This document shows positions 7,414 through 61,190 of a stretch of DNA of 64,000 bases, piece by piece. The notes under the pieces are model-generated. The model was given only the letters and a program-made list of their open reading frames with translations, did no database searches and was not told the DNA's origin. The stretch spans positions 157,109 to 221,108 of the IMG/VR virus record IMGVR_UViG_3300020147_000065; one strand, given 5' to 3'. A program made the position numbers and the translations under genes. This stretch comes from a virus. How positions within the stretch are numbered: position 1 is the stretch's first letter; each line of letters opens with the position of its first letter.

Positions 7414-7602
7414 ATGAAAAGTTTTTATGTTAAGCAGACAACAAGAAACTCCCGTCACGGAAGTTCAAGTTGGGGAACAGGTCACGTCTGCTCAACTTAT
7501 AGTGAACCAGTAGACTCCCTGTTTTTTGCAATTGTCCTTTATTTCGTCTATTTAATTACATTCGATACCGCGATCTGGAATTTGAGCATTAGATATGAAT
7601 GA
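7414..7602 (+). CDS. Single-helix membrane protein, low support
   Basis: 62 residues: polar start, then one hydrophobic helix (LFFAIVLYFVYLITF). Leaderless (TAAAAT, seven bases, ATG). A second frame from ATG 7426 gives a 28-residue peptide of typical phage composition, so the reading here is uncertain. Confidence 0.4.
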   Translation: MKSFYVKQTTRNSRHGSSSWGTGHVCSTYSEPVDSLFFAIVLYFVYLITFDTAIWNLSIRYE

Positions 7603-7693
7603 CGCCCCCCCCCCTTGGCAGTATTTAATTTCCGCAGTATAATCTAATTGTCGCTGAGAAATACGGCGAACAAAAAACAAGGTGAGGTTTACA

Positions 7694-7804
7694 ATGGGTG
7701 ATTTTCTTCTCGAAATGTTGGGCGAAGTGGACGAAGCGACGGTAGCGGCACAAGAGACACAATTAGCTGAAGTTGCGGAAACCAAAGACGCCGACGACGA
7801 CTAA
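7694..7804 (+). CDS. Tiny acidic peptide, paralog of the one at 8181
   Basis: 36 residues: a hydrophobic start (MGDFLLEMLG) then an acidic helix ending DADDD. The same plan (MLDFLADMLGG, then an acidic tail) is seen at 8181, so the two are probably paralogs. GGTGAGG precedes the ATG. Confidence 0.5.
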   Translation: MGDFLLEMLGEVDEATVAAQETQLAEVAETKDADDD

Positions 7805-7938
7805 TTATAGTCACAAAGGGTAAAAACGATTCGCAATTATCGCGCGGGGGAATCCGAAAATTCTCCCGCTCCTTTGTGCCCCCCCCTTGCGTCAAGTGGT
7901 ATATTTGTTAAAATAAATGGTGAAAGTGAGGAAAACAA

Positions 7939-8079
7939 ATGGCTGCTTTGACTGATGAACAGAAGAAATTGGGTTGGGTCGAAGGCACTTCCGCAGAGTT
8001 TCTCGGACTCACACCCGAAGAAGAAGCTCAGGTGCTCGAAGAAATGGAAGGTAAACCAGAAGCAGAGGACTCGGAGTAA
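7939..8079 (+). CDS. Small acidic protein of unknown function
   Basis: 46 residues, acidic, helix-rich (LTPEEEAQVLEEMEG). Sits between the two acidic paralogs at 7694 and 8181. GTGAGG precedes the ATG; -10 TAAAAT. Confidence 0.5.
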   Translation: MAALTDEQKKLGWVEGTSAEFLGLTPEEEAQVLEEMEGKPEAEDSE

Positions 8080-8180
8080 TCCGGGGACTCTGCCCCCCCC
8101 CTTGCGCAATATCTCAAAGAAGTTAAAATATATTATGTCAGTCAGCAATGACGACAAATCAAATCTTTGGAGAAGAAACC

Positions 8181-8312
8181 ATGTCCATGCTCGATTTTTT
8201 GGCCGATATGCTCGGCGGGGAAGCCACGATGAACGATGTCCAGGCCCAGGAAGCCGCTGTCCTTGCGGCTGCGCGAGAAAAAGACGCCGAAGATTACGAC
8301 GACGAGGATTAG
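8181..8312 (+). CDS. Tiny acidic peptide, paralog of the one at 7694
   Basis: 43 residues, MSMLDFLADMLGGEA then an acidic Ala-rich helix ending DYDDED. GGAGAAG before the ATG supports this start. An upstream ATG at the leaderless position opens a different frame, which is Arg-rich and unlikely to be real. Confidence 0.5.
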   Translation: MSMLDFLADMLGGEATMNDVQAQEAAVLAAAREKDAEDYDDED

Positions 8313-8330
8313 TTTATCACTAATCAGGGA

Positions 8331-8357
8331 AAGGGAAAGTCCGAAAGACTTTCCCTT
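8331..8357 (+). terminator. Hairpin with T-rich tail
   Basis: AAGGGAAAGT and ACTTTCCCTT form a 10-bp stem, followed by TTCTTTTTTGT and only then the C-tract. One of few units in this region that has a conventional T-rich tail as well. Confidence 0.7.
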
Positions 8358-8424
8358 TTCTTTTTTGTCTGCCCCCCCCCCTACCATCCCACTGATAAAA
8401 TCTCCCCGTGGGTGGCGATCATAT

Positions 8425-8463
8425 GGAAGATGGAAGGCCAGTGAACCATGTCAAAAATAAAAT
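8425..8463 (+). repeat. GGAAGA repeat element, copy 4
   Basis: GGAAGATGGAAGG start, CATGTCAAAAATAAA end; preceded by a CCCCGTGGGTGGC copy of the operator motif (8404 on). Confidence 0.55.
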
Positions 8464-8522
8464 CGAGAATCACTTTCACCTCCCCCTTGCAGCCATTGTC
8501 ACACCTTGTTAAAATTTAAGGT

Positions 8523-8624
8523 ATGAAATGGCCCAAGATAATTATCACCACGCGGAAGTATATCTACGGTATCCAATCACAAACCCATTGTCAATGGTTG
8601 GTGATGTGCATAAACAGCATCTAA
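8523..8624 (+). CDS. Possible 33-residue peptide
   Basis: Leaderless ATG seven bases after TAAAAT; no other reading is better in this unit. Basic N-terminus, no known motif. It ends inside a hairpin (AGCATCTA and TAGATGCT). Confidence 0.35.
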   Translation: MKWPKIIITTRKYIYGIQSQTHCQWLVMCINSI

Positions 8625-8682
8625 GGGAGTAGATGCTGCCCCCCCCCTTGCAGCACTTTCATAAATTGCGTATAATTTAATT

Positions 8683-8953
8683 GTGAGCGGCGGAGTGAGT
8701 AAGCAATAGGGCAGTGAGGTTGAGAGAGTAACGTATACGGCGCGGTGATGAGTGCGGAGCCAATCGGACATCGAGATGAGCAACTCCAAACAATACTCTA
8801 AGGCTATGGAACGAGGAAATCAAGATACATATACCTGCTGAGGCCCAAAGCTCCAACGTGAGCGTTTTCATAACAAGCAAAGATGCTGCGTAAGAAATTC
8901 CGCCCCGTGCGGTGAGATTCAAAGGCCACGAATCCTATATGCGTGGTATCTTT
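8683..8953 (+). ncRNA. Structured non-coding RNA 1
   Basis: A complete unit with promoter TTGCAG (8648-8653), TATAAT (8671-8676) and a 3' hairpin before the C-tract, but no usable ORF in about 270 bases. GGCGGA (8689-8694) can pair with TCCGCC (8899-8904), enclosing most of the RNA. Local hairpins include CCGC/GCGG at the 3' side. It shares a GTAACGT motif with RNA 3. No known family recognised. Confidence 0.6.
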
Positions 8954-8999
8954 GCCCCCCCCCCTTGCTCTATAATCCTTATCTGTTAAAATAGATTAT

Positions 9000-9233
9000 A
9001 TGAATTGCACAATCTGTGGAAAACCTGTCGTATTGGTGCCATCGGCTGAACATAGAGCCGCTAAAGATTGCACAGGTAAAACCGCTGCTTATTATCGTAG
9101 TTTGTTCACTACCCACGCGGATTGTGAACTCAAAAAGCGGCGCGAGGAATCATTGCCGCGTCCTCTCACAGATTTAGAACGTGTGCAGTATGCCGGTCGT
9201 GGTATCAATTTACCAAATAAAATAATCATATGA
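9000..9233 (+). CDS. Small zinc-finger protein
   Basis: 77 residues. N-terminal CTICGKP knuckle; a later HADC may complete the metal site. Leaderless (TAAAAT, seven bases, ATG). Its TGA overlaps the next ATG (ATGA). Confidence 0.6.
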   Translation: MNCTICGKPVVLVPSAEHRAAKDCTGKTAAYYRSLFTTHADCELKKRREESLPRPLTDLERVQYAGRGINLPNKIII

Positions 9234-9592
9234 CAAGAGTTTGGCGAGTAGAGAACTATCAAGGCTCCAGCCCGTTTGTGGAGCCTTATTTCGCTAATAA
9301 GCCACCCACGGGGTTACAGGTTGACCGACGTGATGATTTTGCTCATGTTAAAGAGTCCCTACCGTGGCGACGTGTTCGCTTCGGTATGACGACGCGTGAA
9401 AATCTCATCGAATGGTTTGGTTTCTCATTAGTGAAAGAGTTCTACAAAGAGGGTTATCGAATAGTTACCTATATTGTAGACGATAGATACGTGATGCACT
9501 CTAAGAGTCGTTATCAGTTAATGTTTGATTTAGACCACGCGAGATTAGATTATGAGGTAGAAGAAAATCAACTAATGTCAGTATGGCCTTAA
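9230..9592 (+). CDS. Protein of unknown function
   Basis: 120 residues, rich in aromatic residues, alpha/beta. Starts in an ATGA overlap with the zinc-finger gene, so both come from one transcript. A reverse-oriented CACCCACGGGG motif copy lies inside the gene near 9302. Confidence 0.6.
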   Translation: MTRVWRVENYQGSSPFVEPYFANKPPTGLQVDRRDDFAHVKESLPWRRVRFGMTTRENLIEWFGFSLVKEFYKEGYRIVTYIVDDRYVMHSKSRYQLMFDLDHARLDYEVEENQLMSVWP

Positions 9593-9615
9593 TGCCCCCC
9601 CCCCTTGACGTTCAT

Positions 9616-9627
9616 CCCCGTGGATTG
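9616..9627 (+). promoter_or_regulatory. Operator-like motif in promoter spacer
   Basis: CCCCGTGGATTG between TTGACG (9605-9610) and TAAAAT (9628-9633), directly before a leaderless start. Confidence 0.6.
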
Positions 9628-9640
9628 TAAAATAATTAAC

Positions 9641-9979
9641 ATGATTCAACCAGTAGCGGACGCATTACCCGGATTTATTAAAGCGGTCAACGAAAAAATG
9701 ACTGACTATTGGGCGCGGCATTATCCTAACTTAACTGCACGTCAAGTCAAAGTCGGTGGTGGTGAGAAGTATATCAAAATCGTTGAAGTCGAGCATGGCG
9801 AAGTGCGTAGCATCTACTGTTTTATTGATGCTTCCAATGGTGATGTGCTTATGCCAGCAAGTTTCAAAAAACCCGCAAAACACGCGCGGGGTAACATCCT
9901 GACCGGCGACCCTGTAAATGACGGGTGTTGTGGGCCTCATGGTGTGCGATACATGGGAACTACCTTCTCTTGGGAGTAG
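9641..9979 (+). CDS. Protein of unknown function
   Basis: 112 residues with a beta-hairpin-like core (KYIKIVEVEHGEVRSIYCFI) and a CCGPHGVRY segment. Leaderless: the ATG follows TAAAAT by seven bases. Not recognised. Confidence 0.65.
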   Translation: MIQPVADALPGFIKAVNEKMTDYWARHYPNLTARQVKVGGGEKYIKIVEVEHGEVRSIYCFIDASNGDVLMPASFKKPAKHARGNILTGDPVNDGCCGPHGVRYMGTTFSWE

Positions 9980-10031
9980 GTAGTTGCCCCCCCCCCTTGT
10001 CAACAGAAATTATATGGATTAAAATATAAGC

Positions 10032-10715
10032 ATGGACAAAAAGATTGATGACGTTTTAAAGTTCGACCCGATTGACACCGCAGAAAAAATGATGGGCGGC
10101 GATAGAAGTGATGCTTCTATGTTTCTGGGCCTCGCTCTGGCAATGGAGAACAACGAACAAAAAGAGCGCGTTTTAAATGCGTCAGGCGATACGCATTTCA
10201 GCACCACGCTTGACCAATATATTTCTATTGTTCAGGGCATCGGTTTCGAGCAGGTTTTGTGCATCCCATTTGTCGGTGAAAAGTGGGGAAAAGAAACTGC
10301 CCCACAAGAGAAATTTTTCGTTTTCTTCGATAAGTCGCGCAGCATTTTGCTTACTTTCGACACCTATAACAGCGGCAAAGTCAACGGTGGCAAGTTTCTC
10401 TATAACATCAAGCCGAACAACGAAAAAAGTTTCTATAATGTTATTTCTTCCGGTGGCTACACGAAAGACAGTGACGGCAATTATGTTTGGGTTGGTGACC
10501 ATGACTGCCGCGAAGCCATCAAACACAAGATTGCACGTTTAGAAGAAAACGGGCAATTCTTAACCAAATGGTTAGAGCGCCCTTTTCTCTGGTTGCTTCA
10601 TTATATGGACACCAAAGACAAGAATTATGATTATCGCGCTATCAACGCGGAACGAATTGCAATGCTGCCGGATTACGTGCAAGAAGCAATCACACCGGCT
10701 CAGTCTTCGGACTGA
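10032..10715 (+). CDS. Protein of unknown function
   Basis: 227 residues, one of the longer proteins in this region. Acidic helical N-terminus, mixed central domain and aromatic C-terminal part. Leaderless. The last residues (TPAQSSD) and TGA are encoded by the terminating hairpin GGCTCAGT and ACTGAGCC. Not recognised. Confidence 0.7.
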   Translation: MDKKIDDVLKFDPIDTAEKMMGGDRSDASMFLGLALAMENNEQKERVLNASGDTHFSTTLDQYISIVQGIGFEQVLCIPFVGEKWGKETAPQEKFFVFFDKSRSILLTFDTYNSGKVNGGKFLYNIKPNNEKSFYNVISSGGYTKDSDGNYVWVGDHDCREAIKHKIARLEENGQFLTKWLERPFLWLLHYMDTKDKNYDYRAINAERIAMLPDYVQEAITPAQSSD

Positions 10716-10765
10716 GCCTTGCCCCCCCCCTTGCTCTATGAAGTATTTATGGTAGAATATATTAC

Positions 10766-11155
10766 ATGACGACAGCCAAAGTTAATCTAATCGGACTCAT
10801 AACCTTTTCCGTTCGTATATCGTGGCAAGGCGACACACCAATAGAAACTTCACGTTTTCTTGATGAAGTAGAGAGTGCTATTCGGCGCTTCATCATCACA
10901 AAAAGGTTATATTTAACCGATGATTTAGCCTTGCGTGTCTCAAGCCGTCCGTTTGAAGGATGCACGGCTCTGCGTCGGATACATGATGTGGCTGATATTT
11001 ATGATGCTTTTGGTTATGTAGCTTATGAAGTAAATATGGACAATATAAGCAAACCTATTCCACTATGCAAACCATCATTGCGTAAAATATTTGGTCGCTT
11101 ACCAAATAACATCTATTTCGATATTTATAAGCGTTCGGCTGTCACCTCAGAGTGA
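10766..11155 (+). CDS. Protein with C-terminal F-x-x-P-x-x-I/L-Y motif
   Basis: 129 residues. Its end (LRKIFGRLPNNIYFDI) matches the ends of proteins at 12871, 13831, 15659 and 32378, which share a short F-G-x-x-P-x-x-I/L-Y-x-x motif. Only the last is close to a named family (DUF6717). Leaderless; the C-terminal codons form half of the terminator stem. Confidence 0.6.
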   Translation: MTTAKVNLIGLITFSVRISWQGDTPIETSRFLDEVESAIRRFIITKRLYLTDDLALRVSSRPFEGCTALRRIHDVADIYDAFGYVAYEVNMDNISKPIPLCKPSLRKIFGRLPNNIYFDIYKRSAVTSE

Positions 11156-11206
11156 CAGCCTTGCCCCCCCCCTTGTGAACCTGCCCCGTGGTTGGTAAAA
11201 TATAAA

Positions 11207-11489
11207 GCGTTCGGTAGATAGCTTAGGAAAAAGGGAGTGACGACCCGAATAAACTTTGCGCTACTCACAATCTGACGGACTGTAAGAATAACTGCATACG
11301 TCGTGCAGGGTGTTCAAATGTCAGAGGGCCAGCAACGTGGCACAGTCCAACACAAAACAAGAGAGCCGGTGAGGAACCGGTGAGGTCGAAATTGAAATAA
11401 GTCGGGCCTCTAAAACCTGACAAAGATTCGGTGTAATGAGCCGAACGCCTCTTACAAAAGTATCTGACTACAAAATCTCTTGAGTTGTG
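11207..11489 (+). ncRNA. Structured non-coding RNA 2
   Basis: Promoter TTGTGA (11173-11178), 17 bp with the operator motif, TAAAAT (11196-11201). No credible ORF in about 280 bases. GCGTTCGG at the predicted 5' end (11207-11214) pairs perfectly with CCGAACGC (11441-11448). Internal hairpins include CTGCA/TGCAG and CCGG/CCGG. The last 40 bases before the C-tract lack a clear hairpin. Confidence 0.6.
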
Positions 11490-11532
11490 CCCCCCCCTTG
11501 TCTGATTCATAAATCTACGATAGAATTAAAGT

Positions 11533-13830: not shown

Positions 13831-14154
13831 ATGTTATTCTCGAAGCCAATCATTCTAACCGGACACTATAATGTGGGAGCAAAGTTCATTCGTTTAAACG
13901 GTAGAGCTTATGATTTGTTTGCTACTGCTGATTATGCAATTACAAATTTACTCCCCGCATATAAAGATGAAGCGGAAATTGCTCTTGTTCTATCGAATAG
14001 ACATATACAGGGCGGTTTAACCTTCAAACGAACCGTTGATGAGAACGGTGATATTTATTATGTCGGTTATGGTTATGAGGGGAGAGTTTGTAGACCCGCA
14101 TTAAAAGAGTTATTCGGCTATCTTCCACGCCGGTTATACCTAAAGTTCATTTAG
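13831..14154 (+). CDS. Protein with C-terminal F-G-Y-L-P-R-R-L-Y motif
   Basis: 107 residues ending LKELFGYLPRRLYLKFI, the same end motif as 10766, 12871, 15659 and 32378. Leaderless. No function known. Confidence 0.6.
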   Translation: MLFSKPIILTGHYNVGAKFIRLNGRAYDLFATADYAITNLLPAYKDEAEIALVLSNRHIQGGLTFKRTVDENGDIYYVGYGYEGRVCRPALKELFGYLPRRLYLKFI

Positions 14155-14174
14155 GTATTGCCCCCCCCTTGTTC

Positions 14175-14187
14175 CCCCGTGGTTTGC
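14175..14187 (+). promoter_or_regulatory. Operator-like motif in an ncRNA promoter
   Basis: CCCCGTGGTTTGC between TTGTTC (14169-14174) and TATAAT (14192-14197): the motif controls non-coding units as well as genes. Confidence 0.6.
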
Positions 14188-14201
14188 TTGATATAATTTA
14201 A

Positions 14202-14445
14202 TTGTCAGTGAGAGAGCGCATATAGTTTGATAAAGCGTAACGTGGCTCATGGTAGGACATAGGCCCCCTGCCAGTAAGGGTTCTTCGGAATCGTATAATG
14301 AGTTCCCCCGCCTAAATGGTGTCTATTCATTTCACTGGATAGGCCCAACATGAAAGCGCAGTGGTGAGTGAAAGCATCCTTCTCTCACTGACAAGGTTTG
14401 GGCGTATGACCCAGTAATGAGGCGCACAGAGGCGTCTGCCCGTTG
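14202..14445 (+). ncRNA. Structured non-coding RNA 3, closed by a 14-bp stem
   Basis: No ORF in about 245 bases of a unit with a full promoter. The first 14 bases (14202-14215, TTGTCAGTGAGAGA) pair perfectly with 14381-14394. Inside are further hairpins and a GGTTCTTCGGAATC segment that resembles a tRNA T-arm. A 3' extension with GGCGC and GCGTC precedes the C-tract. A long terminal stem with a tRNA-like interior is also the plan of bacterial Y RNAs. Confidence 0.65.
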
Positions 14446-14490
14446 CCCCCCCCCCTTGCATTAACTAAAGAAAAGTAGGATAATAATAGT

Positions 14491-14811
14491 ATGGATAAAG
14501 TTAATGATGAACAACAACCCGCTGTTTCTATGGATTTGCAACTCGTTGCCTTCTCAAAAGACAATCAGGACGGCTCTGGCAGCGTTCACGTTTTCAACGA
14601 CACCGACGAACTTCGCAAACATTTTGATGAAGTTTACGACGCCGACATTGACGAAGAGTGCGCGAAAGAAGCAGAAGAAAAGTTCAACGTTGCCATCGCA
14701 GGTTCTCAACCCTACGAAGTTGGCACGGTTGAAACGAAAACCATCAAAGTGGTAGTCGAAAACGGCAAAGTGCGACTCGCTGAGTCCCTACACTTTAGCA
14801 CCGGACAATAG
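14491..14811 (+). CDS. Acidic protein of unknown function
   Basis: 106 residues, acidic, with beta-strand, helix and strand pattern. -10 GATAAT six bases before the ATG. Not recognised. Confidence 0.6.
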   Translation: MDKVNDEQQPAVSMDLQLVAFSKDNQDGSGSVHVFNDTDELRKHFDEVYDADIDEECAKEAEEKFNVAIAGSQPYEVGTVETKTIKVVVENGKVRLAESLHFSTGQ

Positions 14812-20700: not shown

Positions 20701-20759
20701 GTTAGTCAATGCCCCCCCCCCCATTGCACACTCTAAACAATAGCGGTAAAATATATTCC

Positions 20760-21182
20760 ATGAGCAAAACAAAAGTAACCCCGAACAGCGTAGCATTCAG
20801 CGCGTTGCAGGAAGTTGTCAAAGTTGGTAACACGAAACTGAAAGTTCTTTTCGTTGCCGAACGCGGCGTCCACGGTGCCGAAACCTACTGGAACGACGAA
20901 ATGCGCGGCAATGTCGGCAAAGAACTGACCGTGAGAGATTCCGACGCGAGCAGCAACGAATTTCAGCTTTCCGACGATTTCTGGTATCCTGCAATCTCCT
21001 TGTTTGCTGAACCCAAACAGCCGGTAGAAGTGTCGCTGCCTGATTACACGGCGACGGTGTATCCTACCCATCTCCAAGTTGGTTATCAGGAAATCACCAA
21101 AGAAATGGTTCTGGCAATCGTCAAGGGTGGACTGGATACGGGCTTCCTCTCCACATCAGATTTGGAGGGTCTGAATAAATAA
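20760..21182 (+). CDS. Paralog family A, member 1
   Basis: 140 residues. First of eight tandem paralogs with the same plan: short N-terminus with (V/A)AF, a barrel-like domain (VGDKVKVVLxV, VHG, W..xM..xVGK), a YWYPA motif, LPDYTAEITKE, VGCQxLTKEM and a C-terminal helix pair ending EEDLE. Leaderless. Function unknown; separated from member 2 by a KTSC gene. Confidence 0.75.
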   Translation: MSKTKVTPNSVAFSALQEVVKVGNTKLKVLFVAERGVHGAETYWNDEMRGNVGKELTVRDSDASSNEFQLSDDFWYPAISLFAEPKQPVEVSLPDYTATVYPTHLQVGYQEITKEMVLAIVKGGLDTGFLSTSDLEGLNK

Positions 21183-21267
21183 GCCCCGGCTCCCTTCGGG
21201 GAGCTTTGCCCCCCCTTGCGCACAGCTCTAATCTTCTGTATAATTATTAGTAATAAGGAGGCCAACG

Positions 21268-21537
21268 ATGCCTAAATCAATGTTTCGTCCATCGGATGTA
21301 ATGGACAACGCGCATTTCAATGACCACACTAAGGTCTTGACTGTGACGTTTCAGAGTGGTTCGGTTTACGAGTATGAGAATGTGCCTGAGCGCGTTTTCA
21401 ATCGTTTAAACGCCGCTCCTTCTAAGGGACAGTTCTTTAATCAGAACATCCGTAATAAATACGCATTTAAGTGTGTGTTTAAACCCGCTAAGACAACTAC
21501 AGCGCCGCAGGTTCAGCCCGTGGCTGTCACTGTCTAA
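21268..21537 (+). CDS. KTSC-domain protein
   Basis: 89 residues. The KTSC family pattern is clear: F-x-x-x-x-K-x-L-x-V-x-F, G-S-V-Y-E-Y-E-N-V-P, then F-N-x-x-I-R-x-K-Y. KTSC domains (named for Lys, Tyr, Ser, Cys) occur in phages and in lysyl-tRNA-synthetase-linked proteins; function unknown. AAGGAGG precedes the start. A paralog lies at 37294. Confidence 0.75.
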   Translation: MPKSMFRPSDVMDNAHFNDHTKVLTVTFQSGSVYEYENVPERVFNRLNAAPSKGQFFNQNIRNKYAFKCVFKPAKTTTAPQVQPVAVTV

Positions 21538-21634
21538 TGTTCCTCCTTACCGGGAAACGGAGGCTTCCGGGCCTCCGTTTCTTCGGTCTGCCCCCCCCTT
21601 GTCACAAGTAAATTAAAACGATATAATCTATTAC

Positions 21635-22051
21635 ATGAGTGAAACAAACAACGTGAACATTGCTGAACTGAGCCTGAACCAAATTGCATTCTTAAAGCTC
21701 GGCCTCAAAGAAGGCGACACCGTAAAGGTTGTTGCTAAAGTGCCAGAAGGCACACACGGTTCTGATATTTACTGGGAAACGAGTATGACCCGTAAAATCG
21801 GTAAAACCCAACGAGTAGTAGGTGCGCGGAACCATAGCCGAATCGAACTCGAAGATGGGTATTACTACCCTGCCCTCGCGCTGGAAAAAGTGAAAGTTGT
21901 CAAGGAAATTCGGCTCCCTGACTACACCGCTTTAGTCAGCGAAGATGGTGTATCCGTGGGTTGCCAAAACCTCACCAAAGAAATGGTGTTGGGTATCGTA
22001 AAAGCCGCAGTGGAAACGAACTTCATTTCACAGGAGGACTTGGAGTTCTAA
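21635..22051 (+). CDS. Paralog family A, member 2
   Basis: 138 residues with all family landmarks (GDTVKVVAKV, GYYYPALAL, LPDYTALV, VGCQNLTKEMVLGIV). Leaderless. Its terminator (AGCCGTC and GACGGC) differs from those of its neighbours, so the units are not simple recent DNA copies. Confidence 0.75.
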   Translation: MSETNNVNIAELSLNQIAFLKLGLKEGDTVKVVAKVPEGTHGSDIYWETSMTRKIGKTQRVVGARNHSRIELEDGYYYPALALEKVKVVKEIRLPDYTALVSEDGVSVGCQNLTKEMVLGIVKAAVETNFISQEDLEF

Positions 22052-22125
22052 GCCGGGAGCCGTCGAAAGACGGCGACCTGCCCCCCCCCTTGTCACTACT
22101 CAAGAATAACAGTAAAATATATTCC

Positions 22126-22545
22126 ATGAGTGATAAAGTAAAGACAATGAATGATGTGGCTTTCGAGTTTCTCAATGAGAAATTCAAAGTTGGCGACAAA
22201 GTGCGAGTCACCATGCGGGTTGACTCTGGTGTGCAGGGTAATCGAATTGACTGGCTTGAGGGAATGGAAGAGGCTCTCAATTCGGGACTTCACACTATTC
22301 TGGATACCAACGAGTCGTATGGTGCGTTCCGACTGAGTTGTGGTTACTGGTTCCCGGCGTTGGCAATCAGCTCTGATGTTGGTAAAGTCACTGTCAAACT
22401 GCCCGACTACACAGCCGAAATCACCAAAGAAAAAGTCAACGTAGGTTGTCAAGTTCTGACAAAAGAGATGATTCTCAGTATCGTAAAGGCCGCAGTGGAC
22501 ACCGGCTTTTTAAATGAGGAGGATATTGCCTCACTTAAAGGTTAA
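22126..22545 (+). CDS. Paralog family A, member 3
   Basis: 139 residues: GDKVRVTMRV, CGYWFPALAI, LPDYTAEITKE, VGCQVLTKEM. Leaderless (TAAAAT, seven bases, ATG). Confidence 0.75.
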   Translation: MSDKVKTMNDVAFEFLNEKFKVGDKVRVTMRVDSGVQGNRIDWLEGMEEALNSGLHTILDTNESYGAFRLSCGYWFPALAISSDVGKVTVKLPDYTAEITKEKVNVGCQVLTKEMILSIVKAAVDTGFLNEEDIASLKG

Positions 22546-22624
22546 GCGGCGGGGAGCTGCCTTCAGGCAGCGACCTCTTGCCCCCCCCTTGCACTAACCA
22601 ACTAAAAACGATAGAATATATTCC

Positions 22625-23050
22625 ATGAGTGATACAACAGCAAAGACGGTTAATGATGCAGCGTTTGAGATTCTCAGCGCAACGGTCAAAGAAGGCAGCA
22701 AGGTTCGCGTAATTCTTCGTATCCCAAAAGGTATGCATGGAAGCCGCATCTCATGGGTTGACTCGATGGACGGAAACGTGGGCGTCGGTATCCACACTGT
22801 AACCGATGTAAGCCCTCGCTACGGTGCTTTCGAGTTGGACAACGAAAAGTGGTATCCTGCGGTTGCTCTTTCGGCGGACGCGGAAACCGTTCGCGTCGCG
22901 CTCCCTGACTACGAAGCAGAAATTACCAAAGATGGTATCGTAGTCGCGGGGCAGAACCTCACCAAAGAGATGGTTCTCGGCATCGTGCAGGGTGCGCTCG
23001 ACACCGGATTCCTTGATAAAGGAGATGTAGCCACTATTAAGACTTCCTAA
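22625..23050 (+). CDS. Paralog family A, member 4
   Basis: 141 residues: GSKVRVILRI, KWYPAVAL, LPDYEAEITKD, AGQNLTKEMVLGIV. The terminator hairpin after it (GCCATCCACGGGTGGC) has an operator-motif core. Confidence 0.75.
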   Translation: MSDTTAKTVNDAAFEILSATVKEGSKVRVILRIPKGMHGSRISWVDSMDGNVGVGIHTVTDVSPRYGAFELDNEKWYPAVALSADAETVRVALPDYEAEITKDGIVVAGQNLTKEMVLGIVQGALDTGFLDKGDVATIKTS

Positions 23051-23130
23051 GCAACGGGGAGCCATCCACGGGTGGCGACCTTTTGCCCCCCCCCTTGCAC
23101 CAAAATAAGATAAGCGGTATAATTTATTAC

Positions 23131-23568
23131 ATGAGCGATACACAAACAACCCCCGAACTGACCGTGAACCAAGCCGCATTTAATGTTTTAAATGCGAAAG
23201 TGACCGAAGGCGACAAGATTCGCGTCGTCCTCAAAGTGCCTATTACCGTGCATGGTAGTGATGTGAACTGGGTCGAAGAGATGGACAACACCATCAACAA
23301 AACGCTTCGCGTTCGCCGCGTTGACGCAAGCAATGGTTCTTTCTATCTCAGCAACGGCTACTGGTATCCTGCCGTGGCACTCTCCACCGAAGTAGCAAAA
23401 ATCACCGTGCCGCTGCCGGATTACACGGCGGAAATCACCAAAGAACAGGTCAACGTCGGCTGCCAGATTTTGACCAAAGAAATGATTCTCGGCATCGTGC
23501 AAGGCGCGTTGGATGTAGGGTTTCTGAGCGAAGAGGATGTGAACCGCCTCGACACCAGAGAAGTATAA
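23131..23568 (+). CDS. Paralog family A, member 5
   Basis: 145 residues, longest member: GDKIRVVLKV, GYWYPAVAL, LPDYTAEITKE, VGCQILTKEMILGIV, ending SEEDVNRLD. Leaderless. Confidence 0.75.
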   Translation: MSDTQTTPELTVNQAAFNVLNAKVTEGDKIRVVLKVPITVHGSDVNWVEEMDNTINKTLRVRRVDASNGSFYLSNGYWYPAVALSTEVAKITVPLPDYTAEITKEQVNVGCQILTKEMILGIVQGALDVGFLSEEDVNRLDTREV

Positions 23569-23642
23569 CCGGGTGGACTCTTCGGAGTCCACCCTGCCCC
23601 CCCCCCTTGCGCTGATAGAATTTAAACAGTATAATTTATTCC

Positions 23643-24059
23643 ATGAGTGAAACAAGAAAGACGGTTAATGACGCGGCGTTTGAAATCCTCAACGCACAGT
23701 TGAACATTGGTGATAGAGTTCGTATTGTCGCCAAAATTGATGAGGGTGTCCACGGCAGCAAGACTGTTTGGACATCTCGCATGAATGATAGTGTGGGTCA
23801 GTTTATGACTATTCGCGGTGTTGAACCTGAGTATGGTGCTTTTCAGTTGGATAACTATTACTGGTATCCTGCCGTGGCACTCGATACTCAGGTGCATAAA
23901 GTGACGGTTAATCTGCCGGATTATTGCGCTGAAATCACCAAAGAAGGGGTGAACGTGGGTTGTCAGAACCTCACCAAAGAAATGATTCTGCAAATCGTGC
24001 AGGGCGCGTTAGACGTGGGTTTTCTCGATGCCGAGGACATCGAAAGTCTGAAAGTATAA
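23643..24059 (+). CDS. Paralog family A, member 6
   Basis: 138 residues: GDRVRIVAKI, YYWYPAVAL, LPDYCAEITKE, VGCQNLTKEM. Leaderless. Confidence 0.75.
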   Translation: MSETRKTVNDAAFEILNAQLNIGDRVRIVAKIDEGVHGSKTVWTSRMNDSVGQFMTIRGVEPEYGAFQLDNYYWYPAVALDTQVHKVTVNLPDYCAEITKEGVNVGCQNLTKEMILQIVQGALDVGFLDAEDIESLKV

Positions 24060-24136
24060 GCGGCGGGGAGCTATCGAAAGATAGCGACCTTGCCCCCCCC
24101 TTGGCAACACTCAATATAAACAGTAAAATATAAGAC

Positions 24137-24535
24137 ATGAACATGAACCAAGCAGCATTCGAGACGTTGAAGGAAACGCGCGGCATCGGTGACAAAGTGA
24201 AGGTTGTCCTGCAAGTGGACAAAGGTGTGCATGGAAACCTCTTCCGTTGGGATTCCGGTATGACCGAACAAATCGGAAAAGTCTTGACAATCAAAGAGTT
24301 CGATTCTTCGGACAACACCATCCTGCTGTCAGATAGCCGTTATTATCCCGCACTCGCTTTGATGAGCGACAACGGCCCCATTATCGTGGAATTGCCCGAT
24401 TACAAGGCAGAAATCCACGCTGACCGTGTGCAAGTTGGTTGTCAGTGCCTCACCAAACAGATGGTGTTGGACATCGTGAAGGGTGCAGTATCTGTCGGGT
24501 TTATGAGCGAATCAGATTTGGAGGGTCTGCGATAA
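24137..24535 (+). CDS. Paralog family A, member 7
   Basis: 132 residues, shortest member: GDKVKVVLQV, RYYPALAL, LPDYKAEIH, VGCQCLTKQM. Leaderless. Confidence 0.75.
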   Translation: MNMNQAAFETLKETRGIGDKVKVVLQVDKGVHGNLFRWDSGMTEQIGKVLTIKEFDSSDNTILLSDSRYYPALALMSDNGPIIVELPDYKAEIHADRVQVGCQCLTKQMVLDIVKGAVSVGFMSESDLEGLR

Positions 24536-24612
24536 GCCCCCGCGGACTCTTCGGAGTCCGCCTTGCCCCCCCCCCTTGCACAAGGTTCAAATTAAGGGGT
24601 ATAATTTATTCC

Positions 24613-25029
24613 ATGAGCAAACAAAAGACGTTACACGACATTGCATTTGAAGAACTGGGCATCGAAGAGGGCGACTTCGCTAAAGTCGTCCTTAAAGTGG
24701 ACGAAGACGTTCACGGTAACCCGCTCCGTTGGTCGCATGGTATGGAAGAAATGTTAGGTAAGACATTTCGCGTCACCAACATTGATACCAGCGACAACAC
24801 AATCGAACTGAACAACGGCGAATGGTTCTCGGCTATTTCGCTCGAAAAGGCAACCGGCGAAATCAAGGTGCAATTACCGGATTACACCGCAGTCGTAACC
24901 AAAGAAGGCATGGAAGTTGGTTGCCAGAAACTCGACAAAGACAAGGTTTTGGAAATCGTTCAGGCTGCAATCACCACCGGTATGATTGACCGCGATGATG
25001 TCGAAGACCTCGACTATCACGACGACTAA
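24613..25029 (+). CDS. Paralog family A, member 8
   Basis: 138 residues: GDFAKVVLKV, EWFSAISL in place of the YPA motif, LPDYTAVVTKE, VGCQKLDKDKVLEIV, acidic end. The most divergent in the YPA and LTKEM motifs. Confidence 0.7.
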   Translation: MSKQKTLHDIAFEELGIEEGDFAKVVLKVDEDVHGNPLRWSHGMEEMLGKTFRVTNIDTSDNTIELNNGEWFSAISLEKATGEIKVQLPDYTAVVTKEGMEVGCQKLDKDKVLEIVQAAITTGMIDRDDVEDLDYHDD

Positions 25030-40946: not shown

Positions 40947-41024
40947 CAGCGACCTTACTACGTAGCGTTCTAAAGCAGGGAAGTTCTTGCGAGAGTTTGC
41001 AACCTCTCGTTTTTCCTGCTTAGA

Positions 41025-41417
41025 TGGAGATGTGGGTAATTGAAACCCAGTCTTGAAGTAGTAACAAAGTAGTTTATAGGCTTAGACTGTCTTTTAGTTT
41101 AGCTTTCCACGGGGCGCAGTCGTTCTAATCGTATCGGAAAGCGAGTCACTAATTCATACCGACTAATGACTGTCGTTTGGTGCTTACATTAATTACCTCT
41201 ATCTTACATCGTAAGCAATTCAGTAGAGGTTTGCTTAAACTAAATTAAGCTGCGAGACGGGCCATCTGAGCCTTAGGAGCCATAACTCCACCGAACAAAG
41301 AAACACCCTGATTAAAAACGTTGCCGTTTATAGCATGTCAGCCGTTTAAGGTGTCTGCCAACGAACACCGCCTAAATTCCTTTGATAACAAATCTTCAAT
41401 CGAAACCTGTCATCCCC
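41025..41417 (-). ncRNA. ssrA: tmRNA
   Basis: 393 nt. The 5' end GGGGATG (41417-41411) pairs with CATCTCC near the 3' end, followed by A. Before it is T-arm GGGT-TTCAATT-ACCC. After the 5' end comes a D-like loop (ACAGGTTTCGATTGAAG), as in tmRNAs. A tag frame ends GGVMAPKAQMARLAA and TAA, with the classic LAA degradation end. CCA is not encoded. tmRNA frees stalled ribosomes and tags the product. It directly follows a zinc-finger gene on the same transcript. Confidence 0.9.
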
Positions 41418-51817: not shown

Positions 51818-51888
51818 GCGCTTGTAGTTCAGTGGTAGAACACCGACTTCTAGATTCGGGTGTGGCGGGTTCGAATCCTGCCGAGCGC
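51818..51888 (+). tRNA. Amber suppressor-type tRNA (CUA)
   Basis: Acceptor GCGCTTG/CGAGCGC; arm CCGAC-TTCTAGA-TTCGG gives anticodon CUA, which reads UAG (C-U mismatch at 31-39). T-arm GCGGG-TTCGAAT-CCTGC. TATAAT at 51803-51808. The next two translation starts downstream are followed by in-frame TAG codons. Confidence 0.75.
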
Positions 51889-51914
51889 ACTTCATCTTAA
51901 TTAAGGAGCCTACA

Positions 51915-54604: not shown

Positions 54605-55774
54605 ATGACAGCAATCCAACTCCCAACACTTTATTGTCGCCGTCAGGACGGCGGAATCAACCAGTGGACTATCGAAGTTGATGGTAGCCGCAAAAGAACT
54701 ATCTCAGGTAAGGTTGGCGGAAAACTCGTCGAATCTGCATGGGAACAATGTGTAGTAAAGAACGAAGGTCGCTCTAATGCGACCACACCCGAATCACAGG
54801 CTTTAGCACAGGCTCAGTCTGACTGGAATAAGAAAAAGGCACGAAAGTATTCGGAGAGTCCCGATACCGTTGATACTGATAAAATTTATCAGTGTATGTT
54901 AGCGAAAGACGTTCGCGGTGAATGGGATAAGAAAACCGAAACGTGGAAGAAACCCCACTGGCCGAAGATTGAGAAGGCATTGAATGAGGGGCAGAAAATC
55001 TTTGTTCAAGCTAAACTTGATGGTATTCGTTGTATCGCCAATAAAGATGGTTTATGGTCGCGTGAAGGAAAGAGATTCGTTTCTTGTCCTCACATCGAAG
55101 AAGCACTCAAACCTTTGTTTGCTGGACAACCCGATTTGATTCTCGACGGTGAGCTATTCAACTTTGAACTGCGTAACGACTTCAATAAAATCGCTTCGCT
55201 TATCAAGCGTCAGAAACCAACAGCAGAGGATATTGCTGAAACTGCTGAAAATGTGCAGTATCATATTTACGACGTTCCTTCTGTGGATGAATTGTTTGAG
55301 AAGCGGTGTCGTGGCTATAATGCGCTCTGCCGTGTTGCTGATAAACCTTTCATCGTTCCAGTCGAAACTTACGAAGTTAGCTCTCTGCAAGAGATTCACG
55401 ACCTCTACGACCTCTTTGCTGAGACACACAAACAGGAAGGCGCGATTATTCGCTTCAACGTGAAGTATCTGAATAAGCGCACCGACCAACTTCTGAAATA
55501 CAAGGTTTTCGTGGACGAAGAATTTGTAATTGTGGACGTTCACAGCGGAGTAGGTAAAGCCGCTGACCTCGCTTGTAAAATGTCCTTCGTGAATGAGGAC
55601 GGTAATCCTTTTGAGGCGACAACAACAGGTAGTGCAGAAACCCGACAGGGTTATCTAAAAGACCGCAATAATTTAATCGGTAAACGTGCAACGGTGCGTT
55701 ACGGAAATCGAACTCCTGATAAGAATGTCCCGCGTTGGGGAAGAATAATCGCTATACGTGATTACGAAAGTTAG
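54605..55774 (+). CDS. ATP-dependent DNA ligase with WGR-like N-terminus
   Basis: 389 residues. Residues about 1-85 resemble a WGR-type domain (INQWTIEVDGSRKRTISGKVGG). The nucleotidyltransferase core follows: motif I KLDGIR (Lys137), DGELFNF (motif III), EGAIIRF (motif IV), LLKYKVF (motif V), then an OB-like C-terminus. Seals nicks in DNA using ATP. Leaderless. The WGR-like part links it to the PARP-like protein nearby. Confidence 0.85.
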   Translation: MTAIQLPTLYCRRQDGGINQWTIEVDGSRKRTISGKVGGKLVESAWEQCVVKNEGRSNATTPESQALAQAQSDWNKKKARKYSESPDTVDTDKIYQCMLAKDVRGEWDKKTETWKKPHWPKIEKALNEGQKIFVQAKLDGIRCIANKDGLWSREGKRFVSCPHIEEALKPLFAGQPDLILDGELFNFELRNDFNKIASLIKRQKPTAEDIAETAENVQYHIYDVPSVDELFEKRCRGYNALCRVADKPFIVPVETYEVSSLQEIHDLYDLFAETHKQEGAIIRFNVKYLNKRTDQLLKYKVFVDEEFVIVDVHSGVGKAADLACKMSFVNEDGNPFEATTTGSAETRQGYLKDRNNLIGKRATVRYGNRTPDKNVPRWGRIIAIRDYES

Positions 55775-56503
55775 TTAGATGGCGAGAGATGTTAAGGCAT
55801 CTCTCGCCTCTTCTGGTGTAGAAAATCCGGTCTTTGCGTATCTTATTCCGTTAATTTTCTTTGCATATAACCATTTATCTCTCTTGTTATAATACACATT
55901 CGGATAAACATGTTGCTTTTTAACAGGAAGAGAAAAACCATCTTTTATTTCTTTCATGTAATTTTCTCGATTACTTGGAAAATTTAATCTTGCTTCTTTA
56001 CCGTAAAGTAATAGTGCTAATTTATCATAATGTTCTGCGGCTTCTTCCTCTGATAAGAAATCACAACGATAATATTCTTTTCCGTTTTTATCTCTTATAA
56101 ATGCTCTCCATTTTTCACTGGATGCATTATGTAAACAAACCCCCACATATCTTTTATTTGAGTTTTTCTTTACTCCTTGTTGACTGGTGGTAGAATTACC
56201 AAAACGAACATCTGCTGGGTTTCTAATTAAGTTATATCCGAATCTTCTGTCCCAAGACTTTAGCTCATTTATCCAGAAATACTCTCTGTCTTTTGCTTTA
56301 TCAAAATCTACAGTTTCTATAGGCTCAATCATAAAATTGTTTATACCATGAGAAGCCATTGCTTTATGTATAATTGTCTTAGCTCTATGACGAGCAAAAC
56401 TTTTGTGACCATTAAATCTAATATTAATTGGTTGGGTTGTTGAACCAATATAAATTTTCCCATTGAGTAGATTTGTGATCTTGTAGATATTGATCTGTTT
56501 CAT
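55775..56503 (-). CDS. GIY-YIG homing endonuclease with AP2-like domains
   Basis: 242 residues. IYKITNLLNGKIYIGSTTQP is the GIY-YIG motif, with catalytic R (IRFNGH) and E residues; residues about 110-170 and 200-242 are AP2-like DNA-binding repeats (KRYVGVCLHNASSEKWRAFI). Inserted on the minus strand between plus-strand genes; it shares a terminator hairpin (GGCGAGAGATG and CATCTCTCGCC) with the ligase gene. Confidence 0.85.
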   Translation of the reverse strand: MKQINIYKITNLLNGKIYIGSTTQPINIRFNGHKSFARHRAKTIIHKAMASHGINNFMIEPIETVDFDKAKDREYFWINELKSWDRRFGYNLIRNPADVRFGNSTTSQQGVKKNSNKRYVGVCLHNASSEKWRAFIRDKNGKEYYRCDFLSEEEAAEHYDKLALLLYGKEARLNFPSNRENYMKEIKDGFSLPVKKQHVYPNVYYNKRDKWLYAKKINGIRYAKTGFSTPEEARDALTSLAI

Positions 56504-56573
56504 ATAAATCCATACGGTTTACACTTGACATTGGTTCCGAAGTTTAGTAAAATAGTATATACAGGAGAAGAAA

Positions 56574-57887
56574 ATGCCACAAATAATTGATGAAGCGCGT
56601 CTGATATGTGCTAAATTCAAAGACGGGAAGTTAGTACATAATAAATTTTACAACATGACATTATACGACGACAACCGAGTGCGAATTTGGTATGGGCGAT
56701 ATGTTGAGGATGGCAGCGGTGGACTGAAAACACAGAGCGACGAAACGGTTCCTGGCGGTCGCGCTTTGTTTGATTCAAAATATCGTGAAAAGACCGGCCC
56801 AAGAAAAGGTTACAAGCCGCTCCCAGTCGTAGCGAACACAACTTCAGATAGTAAAATAGTTGTGGCTAAAGGCACACTTGCTGAGATTGCAGCAAAGCAA
56901 ATCAAGACTAACTCCGATGAAGTGTTTATGCTTATCAAACATCTCGCAGATGTTAATGTGCATCAAATTACTTCACAAACCTCTATCAAGTATGACGCAG
57001 CAACGGGTAGCTTTTCAACACCTTATGGTCTTGTTACTTCTAATGGTATTGATAAGGGGCGGACACTTTTAGGTGAGATTCATAGTCTGCTAACCACGGG
57101 CACCTTCGATAAGCGTTTTGAGACACTTGTTGAAGAATATATGACAATCATTCCACAAAGTGTTGGTCGCCGTTCAATCGGCCCGAAAGAAGTCTTTCCT
57201 AATCTTGATAAAGTCAAGTCACAAAACGACGTGCTTGATGCTCTTGAAGCATCTTTAACCGAGGCCAATAAACCTAAGAAGGAAGAAAAGAGCGACGAAG
57301 CGCAGGAAGTTGAGAAGTTGTTCGACTGCGTATTAGAGATTGTCACAGACCCCGCAGAATATAACCGCGTGGAAAGCCTTTATACTTCTTCTCGTAAAGA
57401 AATGCACGTAGCAGCACGTTTAAAACTACGTAAGGTTTACCGTGTTGTTATTAACCACATGACGCAAGCCTACAATAACCGTAAGGTTAAAGGTAATGAG
57501 CAAGAGTTATGGCATGGAACATCACCGGCTAACGTGCTTTCGATTCTTAAATCAGGCTTCATGATTTCGCCGCCTTCAACGGCGGCAATCGCGGGTAAAA
57601 ACTTTGGTTACGGTGTTTATTTCGCTAATGCCTCAACCAAGAGTTTAAACTACGCACACGGTTATTGGTCAGGCACTTATGCTCGGAAATGCTTCTTGTT
57701 TTTAAACAACGTGGCTCTTGGTAACTATTATGTTCCTGAGAACACCACGCGAAGCAATCCACCAAAAGGCTACGATTCATACTGGGCACAGGCGGGTAAA
57801 TCCTCCTGGTTACAGAATGATGAGATTGTGATTTTCGACACAACTCAGATTGAGCCTACTTACTTGCTGGAATTTGAGGACAACTAA
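56574..57887 (+). CDS. PARP-like ADP-ribosyltransferase
   Basis: 437 residues. N-terminal WGR-like domain (FYNMTLYDDNRVRIWYGRY), helical regulatory-like region (about 95-220), then a PARP catalytic domain: LWHGTSPANVLSILKSGF (H of H-Y-E), GKNFGYGVYFANASTKSLNY (Y), and a Glu near QNDEIVIF. It transfers ADP-ribose from NAD+. Its chromosomal partner may be the macrodomain protein at 62872. GGAGAAG precedes the ATG. A motif copy (GCTAACCACGGGC) lies inside (57089-57101). Confidence 0.9.
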   Translation: MPQIIDEARLICAKFKDGKLVHNKFYNMTLYDDNRVRIWYGRYVEDGSGGLKTQSDETVPGGRALFDSKYREKTGPRKGYKPLPVVANTTSDSKIVVAKGTLAEIAAKQIKTNSDEVFMLIKHLADVNVHQITSQTSIKYDAATGSFSTPYGLVTSNGIDKGRTLLGEIHSLLTTGTFDKRFETLVEEYMTIIPQSVGRRSIGPKEVFPNLDKVKSQNDVLDALEASLTEANKPKKEEKSDEAQEVEKLFDCVLEIVTDPAEYNRVESLYTSSRKEMHVAARLKLRKVYRVVINHMTQAYNNRKVKGNEQELWHGTSPANVLSILKSGFMISPPSTAAIAGKNFGYGVYFANASTKSLNYAHGYWSGTYARKCFLFLNNVALGNYYVPENTTRSNPPKGYDSYWAQAGKSSWLQNDEIVIFDTTQIEPTYLLEFEDN

Positions 57888-59077: not shown

Positions 59078-59142
59078 CCCCTTGACAAACTTGCAGGAAC
59101 CACGTATAATATCTTACGTGCTAATGCATACATGATAAAAAG

Positions 59143-59212
59143 CTAAGACGTATGCGACAGGTAAAGCAGCTAAAAGCGGTGTGTTTTGCGGGTTCGATTC
59201 CCGCCGTCTTAG
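59143..59212 (+). tRNA. tRNA-like gene, anticodon not assignable
   Basis: Acceptor CTAAGAC/GTCTTAG and T-arm GCGGG-TTCGATT-CCCGC are perfect, but the anticodon arm (TAAAA-GCGGTGTG-TTTTG) has an eight-base loop and no variable loop follows. GCATAC in the leader can pair with GTATGC of the D-arm. A GUG reading is possible but tRNA-His is already at 48835. Confidence 0.5.
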
Positions 59213-59216
59213 TCAT

Positions 59217-59279
59217 AAGGTTCTAACAGCAAACAATCAAAATTGTTTACCATTTAATCAAACAAATCAAATGAACCTT
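59217..59279 (+). ncRNA. YACAGCA element E3
   Basis: AAGGTTC pairs with GAACCTT; inside are TAACAGCA and the hairpin AAACAAT-CAAA-ATTGTTT. Starts four bases after a tRNA-like gene. Confidence 0.5.
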
Positions 59280-59285
59280 GAATTT

Positions 59286-59353
59286 AGGGGAGTAGCTCAC
59301 CGTTAGAGCGTCCGTCTGGAAGGTAGCAGGTTAAATTCCTGCCTCCCCTACCA
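59286..59353 (+). tRNA. tRNA-like gene lacking a normal anticodon arm
   Basis: Acceptor AGGGGAG/CTCCCCT, D-arm GCTC/GAGC, T-arm GCAGG-TTAAATT-CCTGC and ACCA are all good, but only 16 bases (GTCCGTCTGGAAGGTA) lie between D and T arms, so a 5-bp anticodon stem cannot form. Confidence 0.5.
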
Positions 59354-59373
59354 AAAGATAGTTACAGCAATCT

Positions 59374-59443
59374 TTACAGCATAGCTTAATGGATAAGCAA
59401 AAGTCTTCAAAACTTTAGATTGCGGGTTCGACTCCCGCTGCAA
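59374..59443 (+). tRNA. Opal suppressor-type tRNA (UCA), inside an outer stem
   Basis: Acceptor TTACAGC/GCTGCAA (one A-C mismatch), D-arm GCTT/AAGC, anticodon arm AAAGT-CTTCAAA-ACTTT (UCA, reads UGA), T-arm CGGG-TTCGACT-CCCG. Flanking AAGATAGTT (59355-59363) and AACTATCTT (59447-59455) form a 9-bp outer stem (element E4, with TACAGCA). UGA is also used as a normal stop here. Confidence 0.65.
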
Positions 59444-59461
59444 TAAAACTATCTTGTAAAT

Positions 59462-59542
59462 TGGGATGAAGTTCTGAGGTGTTCGGAATATAGGCTCTCC
59501 GCGGAGTCGAAGGGGTAGGTTAAACTCCTACCGTCCCAGCCA
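59462..59542 (+). tRNA. tRNA-Arg (CCG), unusual arms
   Basis: Acceptor TGGGATG/CGTCCCA, GCCA encoded, T-arm GTAGG-TTAAACT-CCTAC. Anticodon arm GGCTC-TCCGCG-GAGTC has a six-base loop if all five pairs form; the triplet CCG is in the right place. Confidence 0.6.
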
Positions 59543-59708: not shown

Positions 59709-61190
59709 ATGGCACGAATGAATAGCCTTGTGGCTGCGCTCAACACGACTGTAACTGAGAAGGGCGCTCTCACCAACCGCTCAAGCGGTTCTGCAATGTT
59801 GGATTTCTACGGACAGATGGGCGCTATGCGCGGTCAGTCTGACTCCAACGTAAACTCTACGTTCTCCGCGGCTTTTGCTGCTGAGCGAGCACTTGCTCTC
59901 CGTTCTCTCTTCTATCTCCGTGACGTTCGCGGTGGTAAGGGTGAGCGAAAGACCTTCCGCACCATCCTTGATTGGTTGGTAAAGAATGACCCACAGGTTG
60001 TAATCAATAACCTCGATAACATCTCGTTCTATGGTCGTTACGACGACCTTGCCCGTTTGATTAACTGCGGAAACACTAAGGTGAAGAACGCAGTGGTCGC
60101 AAAGGTCAAGGCTCAGCTTGCGGCTGACAAGAACGACGAACACCCTTCGCTCTTGGCTAAGTGGATGCCCTCCATTAACGCCTCGTCCACAGAGTCTAAG
60201 TCTCTGGCGAAGAAGTGGATTCGTGCTCTCGGTATGTCCGAGGCCGAATATCGTAAGACTCTTTCTGCGCTTCGTGCTCAGATTAAGGTTGTCGAGCGTT
60301 ATATGTGCGCCCGTGATTGGGATTCGATTAACTTCGAGCACGTCCCATCGAACGCTGCAAAGCTGTATCGTAAGGCGTTTAAGACCCGCGCACCTGAGCG
60401 TTACTCTGAGTATCTCGGTGCCGTAGAGAAGGGTGAGAAGACCATCAAGGCTTCTACTCTTTACCCCTACGACCTCGTTCGTCCTTACTTGAAGGCCGGT
60501 GGCTATTACGGTGGACGTGTAAGCGTTGACCGCACTATCGAAGCACAGTGGAAGGCTCTGCCTAACTACCTCGCTGACGATGACACCGACTTCTTGGTAA
60601 TCGCGGACACTTCGGGTTCGATGTTCGACCACTCGTTGGATTTCTTGCCCATCTGCGTATCAGTGTCTTTGGCACTATACTCGGCTGAGCGTAACCGTGG
60701 AGCCTTCAAGGGCTTCTGGATGAACTTCTCAACTTCTCCTACTTTCCAGCAGGTTCGTGGTGAGACTTTGGCTGACAAGATTAGCAACATGGACTACTCT
60801 AACTGGTGTGGTTCTACCAACGTTGACAAGGCTTTCGAGTTGATTCTTTCTCGCGCTCGCGCGGCGAATGTTCCAGCCGACGAAATGCCTAAGATGTTGA
60901 TGGTCATTAGTGATATGCAGTTTGACGGTCACTGCACCGTGACGAACCTTGAGACTTGGAAGAAGAAGTTCGCAACCTACGGTTACGAGGCTCCAACCAT
61001 CGTCTTCTGGAACGTAAACGCACGTCCTGGCCAGTCGCCAATTACTGTAAACGACAAGGGTGTAATGCTTGTTAGCGGTGCGTCCGCAGAGACATTCCGC
61101 GCTGTCCTTTCCGGTAAGAACTTGTCGGCTTACGACGCAATGGTTAATACTCTCAGCAATGAGCGTTACGACCGTGTTGTTGTAGACTAA
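59709..61190 (+). CDS. Ro60/TROVE-like (or related DUF2828) vWA protein
   Basis: 493 residues. N-terminal helical (HEAT-like) part with YLRDVRGGKGERKTF, then a von Willebrand A domain with the MIDAS motif DTSGSM (about 302-307) and a later T/D. This is the plan of Ro60 and of the related DUF2828 family. Ro60 proteins are rings that bind Y RNAs and misfolded RNAs and can partner with PNPase. The codon use differs from its neighbours (more C-ending codons), a possible sign of high expression or transfer. Confidence 0.75.
   Translation: MARMNSLVAALNTTVTEKGALTNRSSGSAMLDFYGQMGAMRGQSDSNVNSTFSAAFAAERALALRSLFYLRDVRGGKGERKTFRTILDWLVKNDPQVVINNLDNISFYGRYDDLARLINCGNTKVKNAVVAKVKAQLAADKNDEHPSLLAKWMPSINASSTESKSLAKKWIRALGMSEAEYRKTLSALRAQIKVVERYMCARDWDSINFEHVPSNAAKLYRKAFKTRAPERYSEYLGAVEKGEKTIKASTLYPYDLVRPYLKAGGYYGGRVSVDRTIEAQWKALPNYLADDDTDFLVIADTSGSMFDHSLDFLPICVSVSLALYSAERNRGAFKGFWMNFSTSPTFQQVRGETLADKISNMDYSNWCGSTNVDKAFELILSRARAANVPADEMPKMLMVISDMQFDGHCTVTNLETWKKKFATYGYEAPTIVFWNVNARPGQSPITVNDKGVMLVSGASAETFRAVLSGKNLSAYDAMVNTLSNERYDRVVVD

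What the first reader, a model, noticed from the sequence alone, without database searches (positions are those of the whole stretch)
14202..14445. Candidate ncRNA 3 with a perfect 14-bp terminal stem
The stem begins at the transcription start and encloses a domain with a T-arm-like segment. This matches the general plan of bacterial Y RNAs, whose partner Ro60 has a likely relative at 59709.
Basis: partly seen in the sequence, partly recalled or inferred. Interest (0 to 1): 0.75.

Follow-up and report, generated by a model that had tools for sequence, protein, structure and literature searches.

The report
Orphan stem-closed phage RNA gene

Summary
At 14202-14215 / 14381-14394 there is an exact 14-bp closing stem. 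None of 5,000 shuffled copies of the unit has one, nor did 10 shuffled windows. It starts where a sigma70-type promoter (TTGTTC-17-TATAAT, 14169-14197) should start transcription. The unit (14169-14445) has no ORF beyond chance and sits between two poly-C gene separators of a 221-kb phage record. Two hairpin loops inside can pair over 7 bp (about 0.1% of shuffles do as well). The interior otherwise folds no better than chance.

The Y RNA half is not supported. Rfam's YrlA model and a model I trained on six phage Y RNAs find Y RNAs close to Ro-like genes in other phages, but give nothing here (E<=10; 2 bits near it, unfiltered). The 'T-arm' is a UUCG hairpin, and the unit lies 45 kb from the Ro-like gene.

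No Rfam family, paralogue or homologue was found, so it is an orphan with a single sequence and no covariation test. Most likely it is a stable, end-sealed RNA acting as a protein scaffold or decoy. That role is inferred, not shown.

The parts
14161..14168 (+). poly-C separator (C8) ending the preceding gene unit
14169..14197 (+). sigma70-type promoter TTGTTC (14169-14174), 17-nt spacer, TATAAT (14192-14197)
   Evidence: sequence; same layout in 69 of 88 C-run units. It scores below the generic scan's cut-off
14175..14182 (+). CCCCGTGG inside the promoter spacer, shared by a subset of promoters
14202..14215 (+). 5' arm of the closing stem (predicted transcription start about 14202-14205)
14216..14219 (+). 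second helix, 5' strand, pairs with 14356-14359 (probability 0.73)
14250..14273 (+). predicted hairpin (probability about 0.69)
14279..14292 (+).
14317..14347 (+). strong hairpin (pair probability up to 0.99), loop AUUUCACU
14360..14380 (+). hairpin with loop AGUGAAAG; its AGUGAAA (14367-14373) is complementary to UUUCACU (14330-14336), a possible 7-bp kissing loop
14381..14394 (+). 3' arm of the closing stem
14401..14440 (+). 3' tail hairpin (AGGCGC..GCGUCU, 14420-14437) before the poly-C run, probable 3' end of the transcript
14446..14455 (+). poly-C separator (C10) closing the unit
59709..61190 (+).

Best explanation
14169-14445 is a stand-alone non-coding RNA gene of a large phage. A sigma70-type promoter starts an RNA of about 240 nt at about 14202-14205. 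Its first 11-14 bases pair perfectly with 14381-14394 and close a branched interior in which two hairpin loops may kiss over 7 bp. A short tail ends in a hairpin before the poly-C separator. The closing helix buries the 5' end and should make the RNA long-lived. I think it most likely works as a protein-binding scaffold or decoy during infection. Shown by sequence: the stem, the absence of an ORF, the promoter position and the isolation of the unit. Predicted: the interior fold and the kissing loop. Inferred only: expression, stability, and the scaffold or decoy role.
For: Exact 14-bp stem, absent from every shuffle. Fold z about -3 stem to stem. Longest ORF 34 aa, about equal to the shuffle mean, with stops in all three frames. 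The unit is one of three without a plausible ORF, while most neighbouring units are almost entirely coding. Promoter layout and spacing match the leaderless genes of the array. Complementary hairpin loops at this level are found in about 0.1% of shuffles. No excess of complementarity to the phage's own genome, which argues against an antisense role within the phage.
Against: Only one sequence exists: no homologue or paralogue was found, so no covariation test is possible. The interior alone folds no better than shuffles. No transcript data. No partner protein is identified. The lack of homologues may reflect a fast-evolving or dispensable element; records nearest to the window's own may have been left out of the searches.
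Confidence: 0.4

Rival explanations
1. It is the Y RNA (YrlA-like) partner of the phage's Ro60-like protein.
For: Closing stem around an internal domain; the phage does carry a Ro60-fold protein. Many Ro-carrying phages lack a recognisable YrlA (only 4 of 50 have one at E<=1e-5), so a divergent partner is conceivable.
Against: No YrlA match at E<=10, although the same model finds Y RNAs beside Ro-like genes in EFGrKN, Krypton555 and Tyson and 1.3 kb away in phiM12. Phage-trained model scores about 2 bits at most in the region, unfiltered. No T-loop. It lies 45 kb from the Ro-like gene.
Confidence: 0.06
2. The long stem is a processing site: a double-strand-specific RNase (RNase III type) cuts it and releases the interior, or a shorter regulatory RNA, that base-pairs with host mRNAs.
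For: An 11-14 bp perfect helix flanking a domain resembles the flanking stems of rRNA precursors (established knowledge). A small RNA could act on the unknown host's transcripts.
Against: Pairing starts at the predicted transcription start, leaving no precursor 5' of it. No excess complementarity to the phage genome. Host unknown, so host targets are untested.
Confidence: 0.2
3. It acts as DNA (origin, recombination or packaging site), the inverted repeat being the signal.
For: Perfect inverted repeat in an ORF-free stretch.
Against: The arms are 165 nt apart. The unit has its own promoter in the array's standard layout and the stem starts where transcription should. The reverse strand folds less well (-53.5 vs -64.1 kcal/mol).
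Confidence: 0.07
4. It is a decayed protein gene or encodes a short peptide (34 aa from the ATG at 14249).
For: Neighbouring units are coding.
Against: The ORF length is what shuffles give (50% reach it), stops lie in all frames, and no ATG follows the -10 box at the usual 4-7 nt.
Confidence: 0.08

Closest known systems
Bacterial and phage Y RNAs (YrlA, Rfam RF02553)
   Same: 5' and 3' parts pair and close an internal domain; found in phages that carry a Ro60-like protein.
   Different: No tRNA-like T-arm and D-arm core, no covariance-model match, about twice the length, not next to the Ro-like gene.
Retron msr-msd RNA (a1/a2 ends)
   Same: Perfectly complementary ends enclosing a structured non-coding RNA at the start of a transcript.
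   Different: No reverse transcriptase (PF00078) in the 221-kb record.
Phage phi29 packaging RNA (pRNA)
   Same: Paired 5' and 3' ends plus two complementary loops in one RNA.
   Different: No Rfam match at E<=10; different size; unrelated phage. A resemblance recalled from memory only.
Ornate phage/bacterial RNAs (GOLLD, ROOL)
   Same: Structured RNAs stabilised by kissing loops (PMC12286853).
   Different: Much shorter here; no Rfam match.

Membership tests
YrlA / bacterial Y RNA | Covariance-model match (RF02553) | tested here: not met
   No hit at E<=10 over the element; phage Y RNAs score 30-48 bits in the same kind of search
YrlA / bacterial Y RNA | tRNA-like core: T-arm with TTCRA loop followed by a D-arm | tested here: not met
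   No TTC[AG]A on either strand of 14100-14500; phage-trained model R2 scores 2.2 bits at best in 14100-14500, filters off
YrlA / bacterial Y RNA | Closing stem formed by the 5' and 3' parts | tested here: met
   14-bp perfect stem; not specific to Y RNAs
YrlA / bacterial Y RNA | Gene close to the Ro60 gene (usual, not obligatory) | tested here: not met
   45 kb away; in EFGrKN, Krypton555, Tyson and G048 the Y RNA is adjacent
YrlA / bacterial Y RNA | Binding to a Ro60 protein | not testable with these tools
   Needs co-purification. The candidate partner does have the Ro60 fold
Any of the 4227 families of Rfam 15 (6S, RNase P, tmRNA, GOLLD, ROOL, pRNA, ribozymes) | Covariance-model match | tested here: not met
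   0 matches at E<=10 in 14100-14500, both strands
Retron | Reverse transcriptase gene with the msr-msd RNA | tested here: not met
   No PF00078 match in the 221-kb record, which may be incomplete
Stand-alone structured phage non-coding RNA | Own promoter, no ORF, non-random structure | tested here: met
Stand-alone structured phage non-coding RNA | Detected transcript and conserved pairing in relatives | not testable with these tools
   No RNA data; no homologue found

The most novel reading that the evidence does not exclude
A new class of phage RNA: an end-sealed RNA with a kissing-loop core that docks a phage or host protein. It may be one of three unrelated RNA genes (8648-8954, 11173-11489, 14169-14445) kept in the same array of single-gene units.
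Probability: 0.3. Interest if true: 0.6.

Novelty: new member of a known kind. Interest (0 to 1): 0.4.

Why it matters
Large phages carry unexplained RNA genes that protein-based annotation does not see. This one has clear boundaries, so expression, structure probing and pull-down would be simple tests. The negative result matters too: a Ro60-like gene in a phage does not make every stem-closed RNA in it a Y RNA, and model searches can separate the two.

Tried and rejected
Rfam at E<=10 over the element, and at E<=3 over 7600-11500 where the sister units lie: nothing. blastn against phages and plasmids: no RNA homologue. Exact scan of viral contigs for the stem: none. A single-sequence covariance model of the element over the own record, 90 other phage loci (89 of them Ro-like), 37 stretches of other phages and 50 further whole records: only itself, apart from two insignificant stem-only hits. 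Looking for close relatives through the DNA polymerase gave phages that share little beyond the polymerase. The poly-C/promoter pattern in viral and genome contigs gave only isolated matches. Retron idea: no reverse transcriptase. Antisense to the phage genome: no more than shuffles. Short peptide: no more than chance. Stop-codon reassignment because of CTA and TCA tRNAs: TAG and TGA are both used as ordinary stops.

Full report
Where it lies. The window is bases 157109-221108 of a 221,108-base virus record. Outside the window the record encodes a RIIA homologue, a DnaB-type helicase, a DNA polymerase, a ribonucleotide reductase and tail proteins, so it is a large tailed phage. I found no close relative. 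Records that share the DNA polymerase at 53-57% share little else. The searches may omit records very near the window's own.

Architecture. From about 0.6 to 36 kb the window is an array of single-gene units. Each unit is a promoter, a gene (usually leaderless), a hairpin at the stop codon and a run of 7-11 C, then the TTG of the next promoter. There are 88 such runs on the + strand of the window. The 45 nt before each fold at a mean of -16 kcal/mol against -8.7 for shuffles. Most units are almost wholly coding. Units 8648-8954, 11173-11489 and 14169-14445 have no plausible ORF.

The observation. The 14-bp stem is exact at 14202-14215 / 14381-14394. No shuffled unit (0 of 5,000) or shuffled window (0 of 10) contains one, and the next-best closing stem among 78 units is 8 bp. 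The promoter TTGTTC-17-TATAAT ends at 14197. In this array start codons mostly sit 4-7 nt after the -10 box, so transcription should begin at about 14202-14205, at the stem. All frames carry stops, and the longest ORF (34 aa) is about the shuffle mean. The RNA folds better than shuffles stem to stem (z about -3) but the interior alone does not (z 0.06). The loops of hairpins 14317-14347 and 14360-14380 carry UUUCACU and AGUGAAA; complementarity at this level between hairpin loops occurs in 0.13% of shuffles. The tail 14395-14445 ends in a hairpin before the C-run, like the other units.

The Y RNA idea. The protein at 59709 is a Ro60 relative: Pfam DUF2828/DUF7788, 41% identity to mycobacteriophage 'Ro-like' proteins, and a confident model whose eight best PDB matches are all Ro60/TROVE. 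To learn what a phage Y RNA looks like I ran Rfam's YrlA model on nine annotated phages with such a protein. It matched below its curated cut-off, but beside the Ro-like gene in Enterococcus phage EFGrKN and in mycobacteriophages Krypton555 and Tyson, and 1.3 kb away in Sinorhizobium phage phiM12. Six of these and similar sequences align well around a permuted T-arm and D-arm core. A model from them found further strong matches within 3 kb of Ro-like genes in environmental phages (L179, L180, L126). By the same tests the element fails: no YrlA match at E<=10 and 2.2 bits at best in the region, unfiltered. The 'T-arm' is a UUCG hairpin and no T-loop motif is present. A caveat: only 4 of 50 Ro-carrying records show a YrlA at E<=1e-5, so a partner of another kind cannot be excluded in general.

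What it is. The evidence supports a non-coding RNA gene with its own promoter and sealed ends. It matches none of the 4227 Rfam families, has no paralogue in the record and no homologue where I could look. The most likely role, on anatomy alone, is a stable RNA that binds a protein as scaffold or decoy. A processed regulatory RNA aimed at the host is the main rival. Neither role is shown. With one sequence there is no covariation test, and that is the main limit of this report.

Verdict. Real and well delimited; filed as a new phage non-coding RNA of unknown family, not as a Y RNA.

Noticed in passing
window 628-36000 (most of 88 C-runs; others to 62.8 kb): Array of single-gene units separated by hairpin + NTG + 7-11 C + TTG (-35 of the next promoter), mostly leaderless genes; 277 CCCCCCC matches against 5 expected. 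In the own record the GCCCCCCCCTTG form occurs only inside this window, and I found the array in no other virus or genome. What the C-runs do is unexplained.
   Followed up: partly
window 8648-8954 and 11173-11489: Two more ORF-free units with their own promoters. The second has a GCGTTCGG/CCGAACGC closing stem (11207/11448) and a possible GGACTGT/ACAGTCC pseudoknot. No Rfam match; no similarity to 14202 by covariance model.
   Followed up: partly
window 14175, 3639, 9616, 11184, 20039, 25079, 27468: CCCCGTGG lies between the -35 and -10 boxes of seven promoters, including two of the three ORF-free units: a possible operator.
   Followed up: no
window 59117-59630: Directly upstream of the Ro60-like gene lie tRNAs and tRNA-like stretches with odd anticodon arms (for example 59140-59215, acceptor CTAAGACG/CGTCTTAG with T-arm GCGGGTTCGATTCCCGC). 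By position they are better Y RNA candidates than 14202, but they score at tRNA background (17-31 bits).
   Followed up: partly
L179:5260-5366, L180:5096-5203, L126:5155-5266: Y-RNA-like sequences within 3 kb of Ro60-like genes in environmental phages, found with a model trained on six phage Y RNAs.
   Followed up: no
window 41022-41417 (-): tmRNA gene by Rfam (89 bits) that ARAGORN does not report.
   Followed up: no
window 51818-51890 and 59374-59447: tRNAs with anticodons CTA and TCA, which would read UAG and UGA; TAG and TGA are nevertheless used as ordinary stops in the array.
   Followed up: partly
window 20724-25029: Tandem family of about eight paralogous genes of roughly 490-500 bp, each its own C-run unit (repeat families D4, D5, D7).
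   Followed up: no
window 54605-57887: Phage-borne ATP-dependent DNA ligase and a PARP-type ADP-ribosyltransferase near the Ro60-like gene.
   Followed up: no
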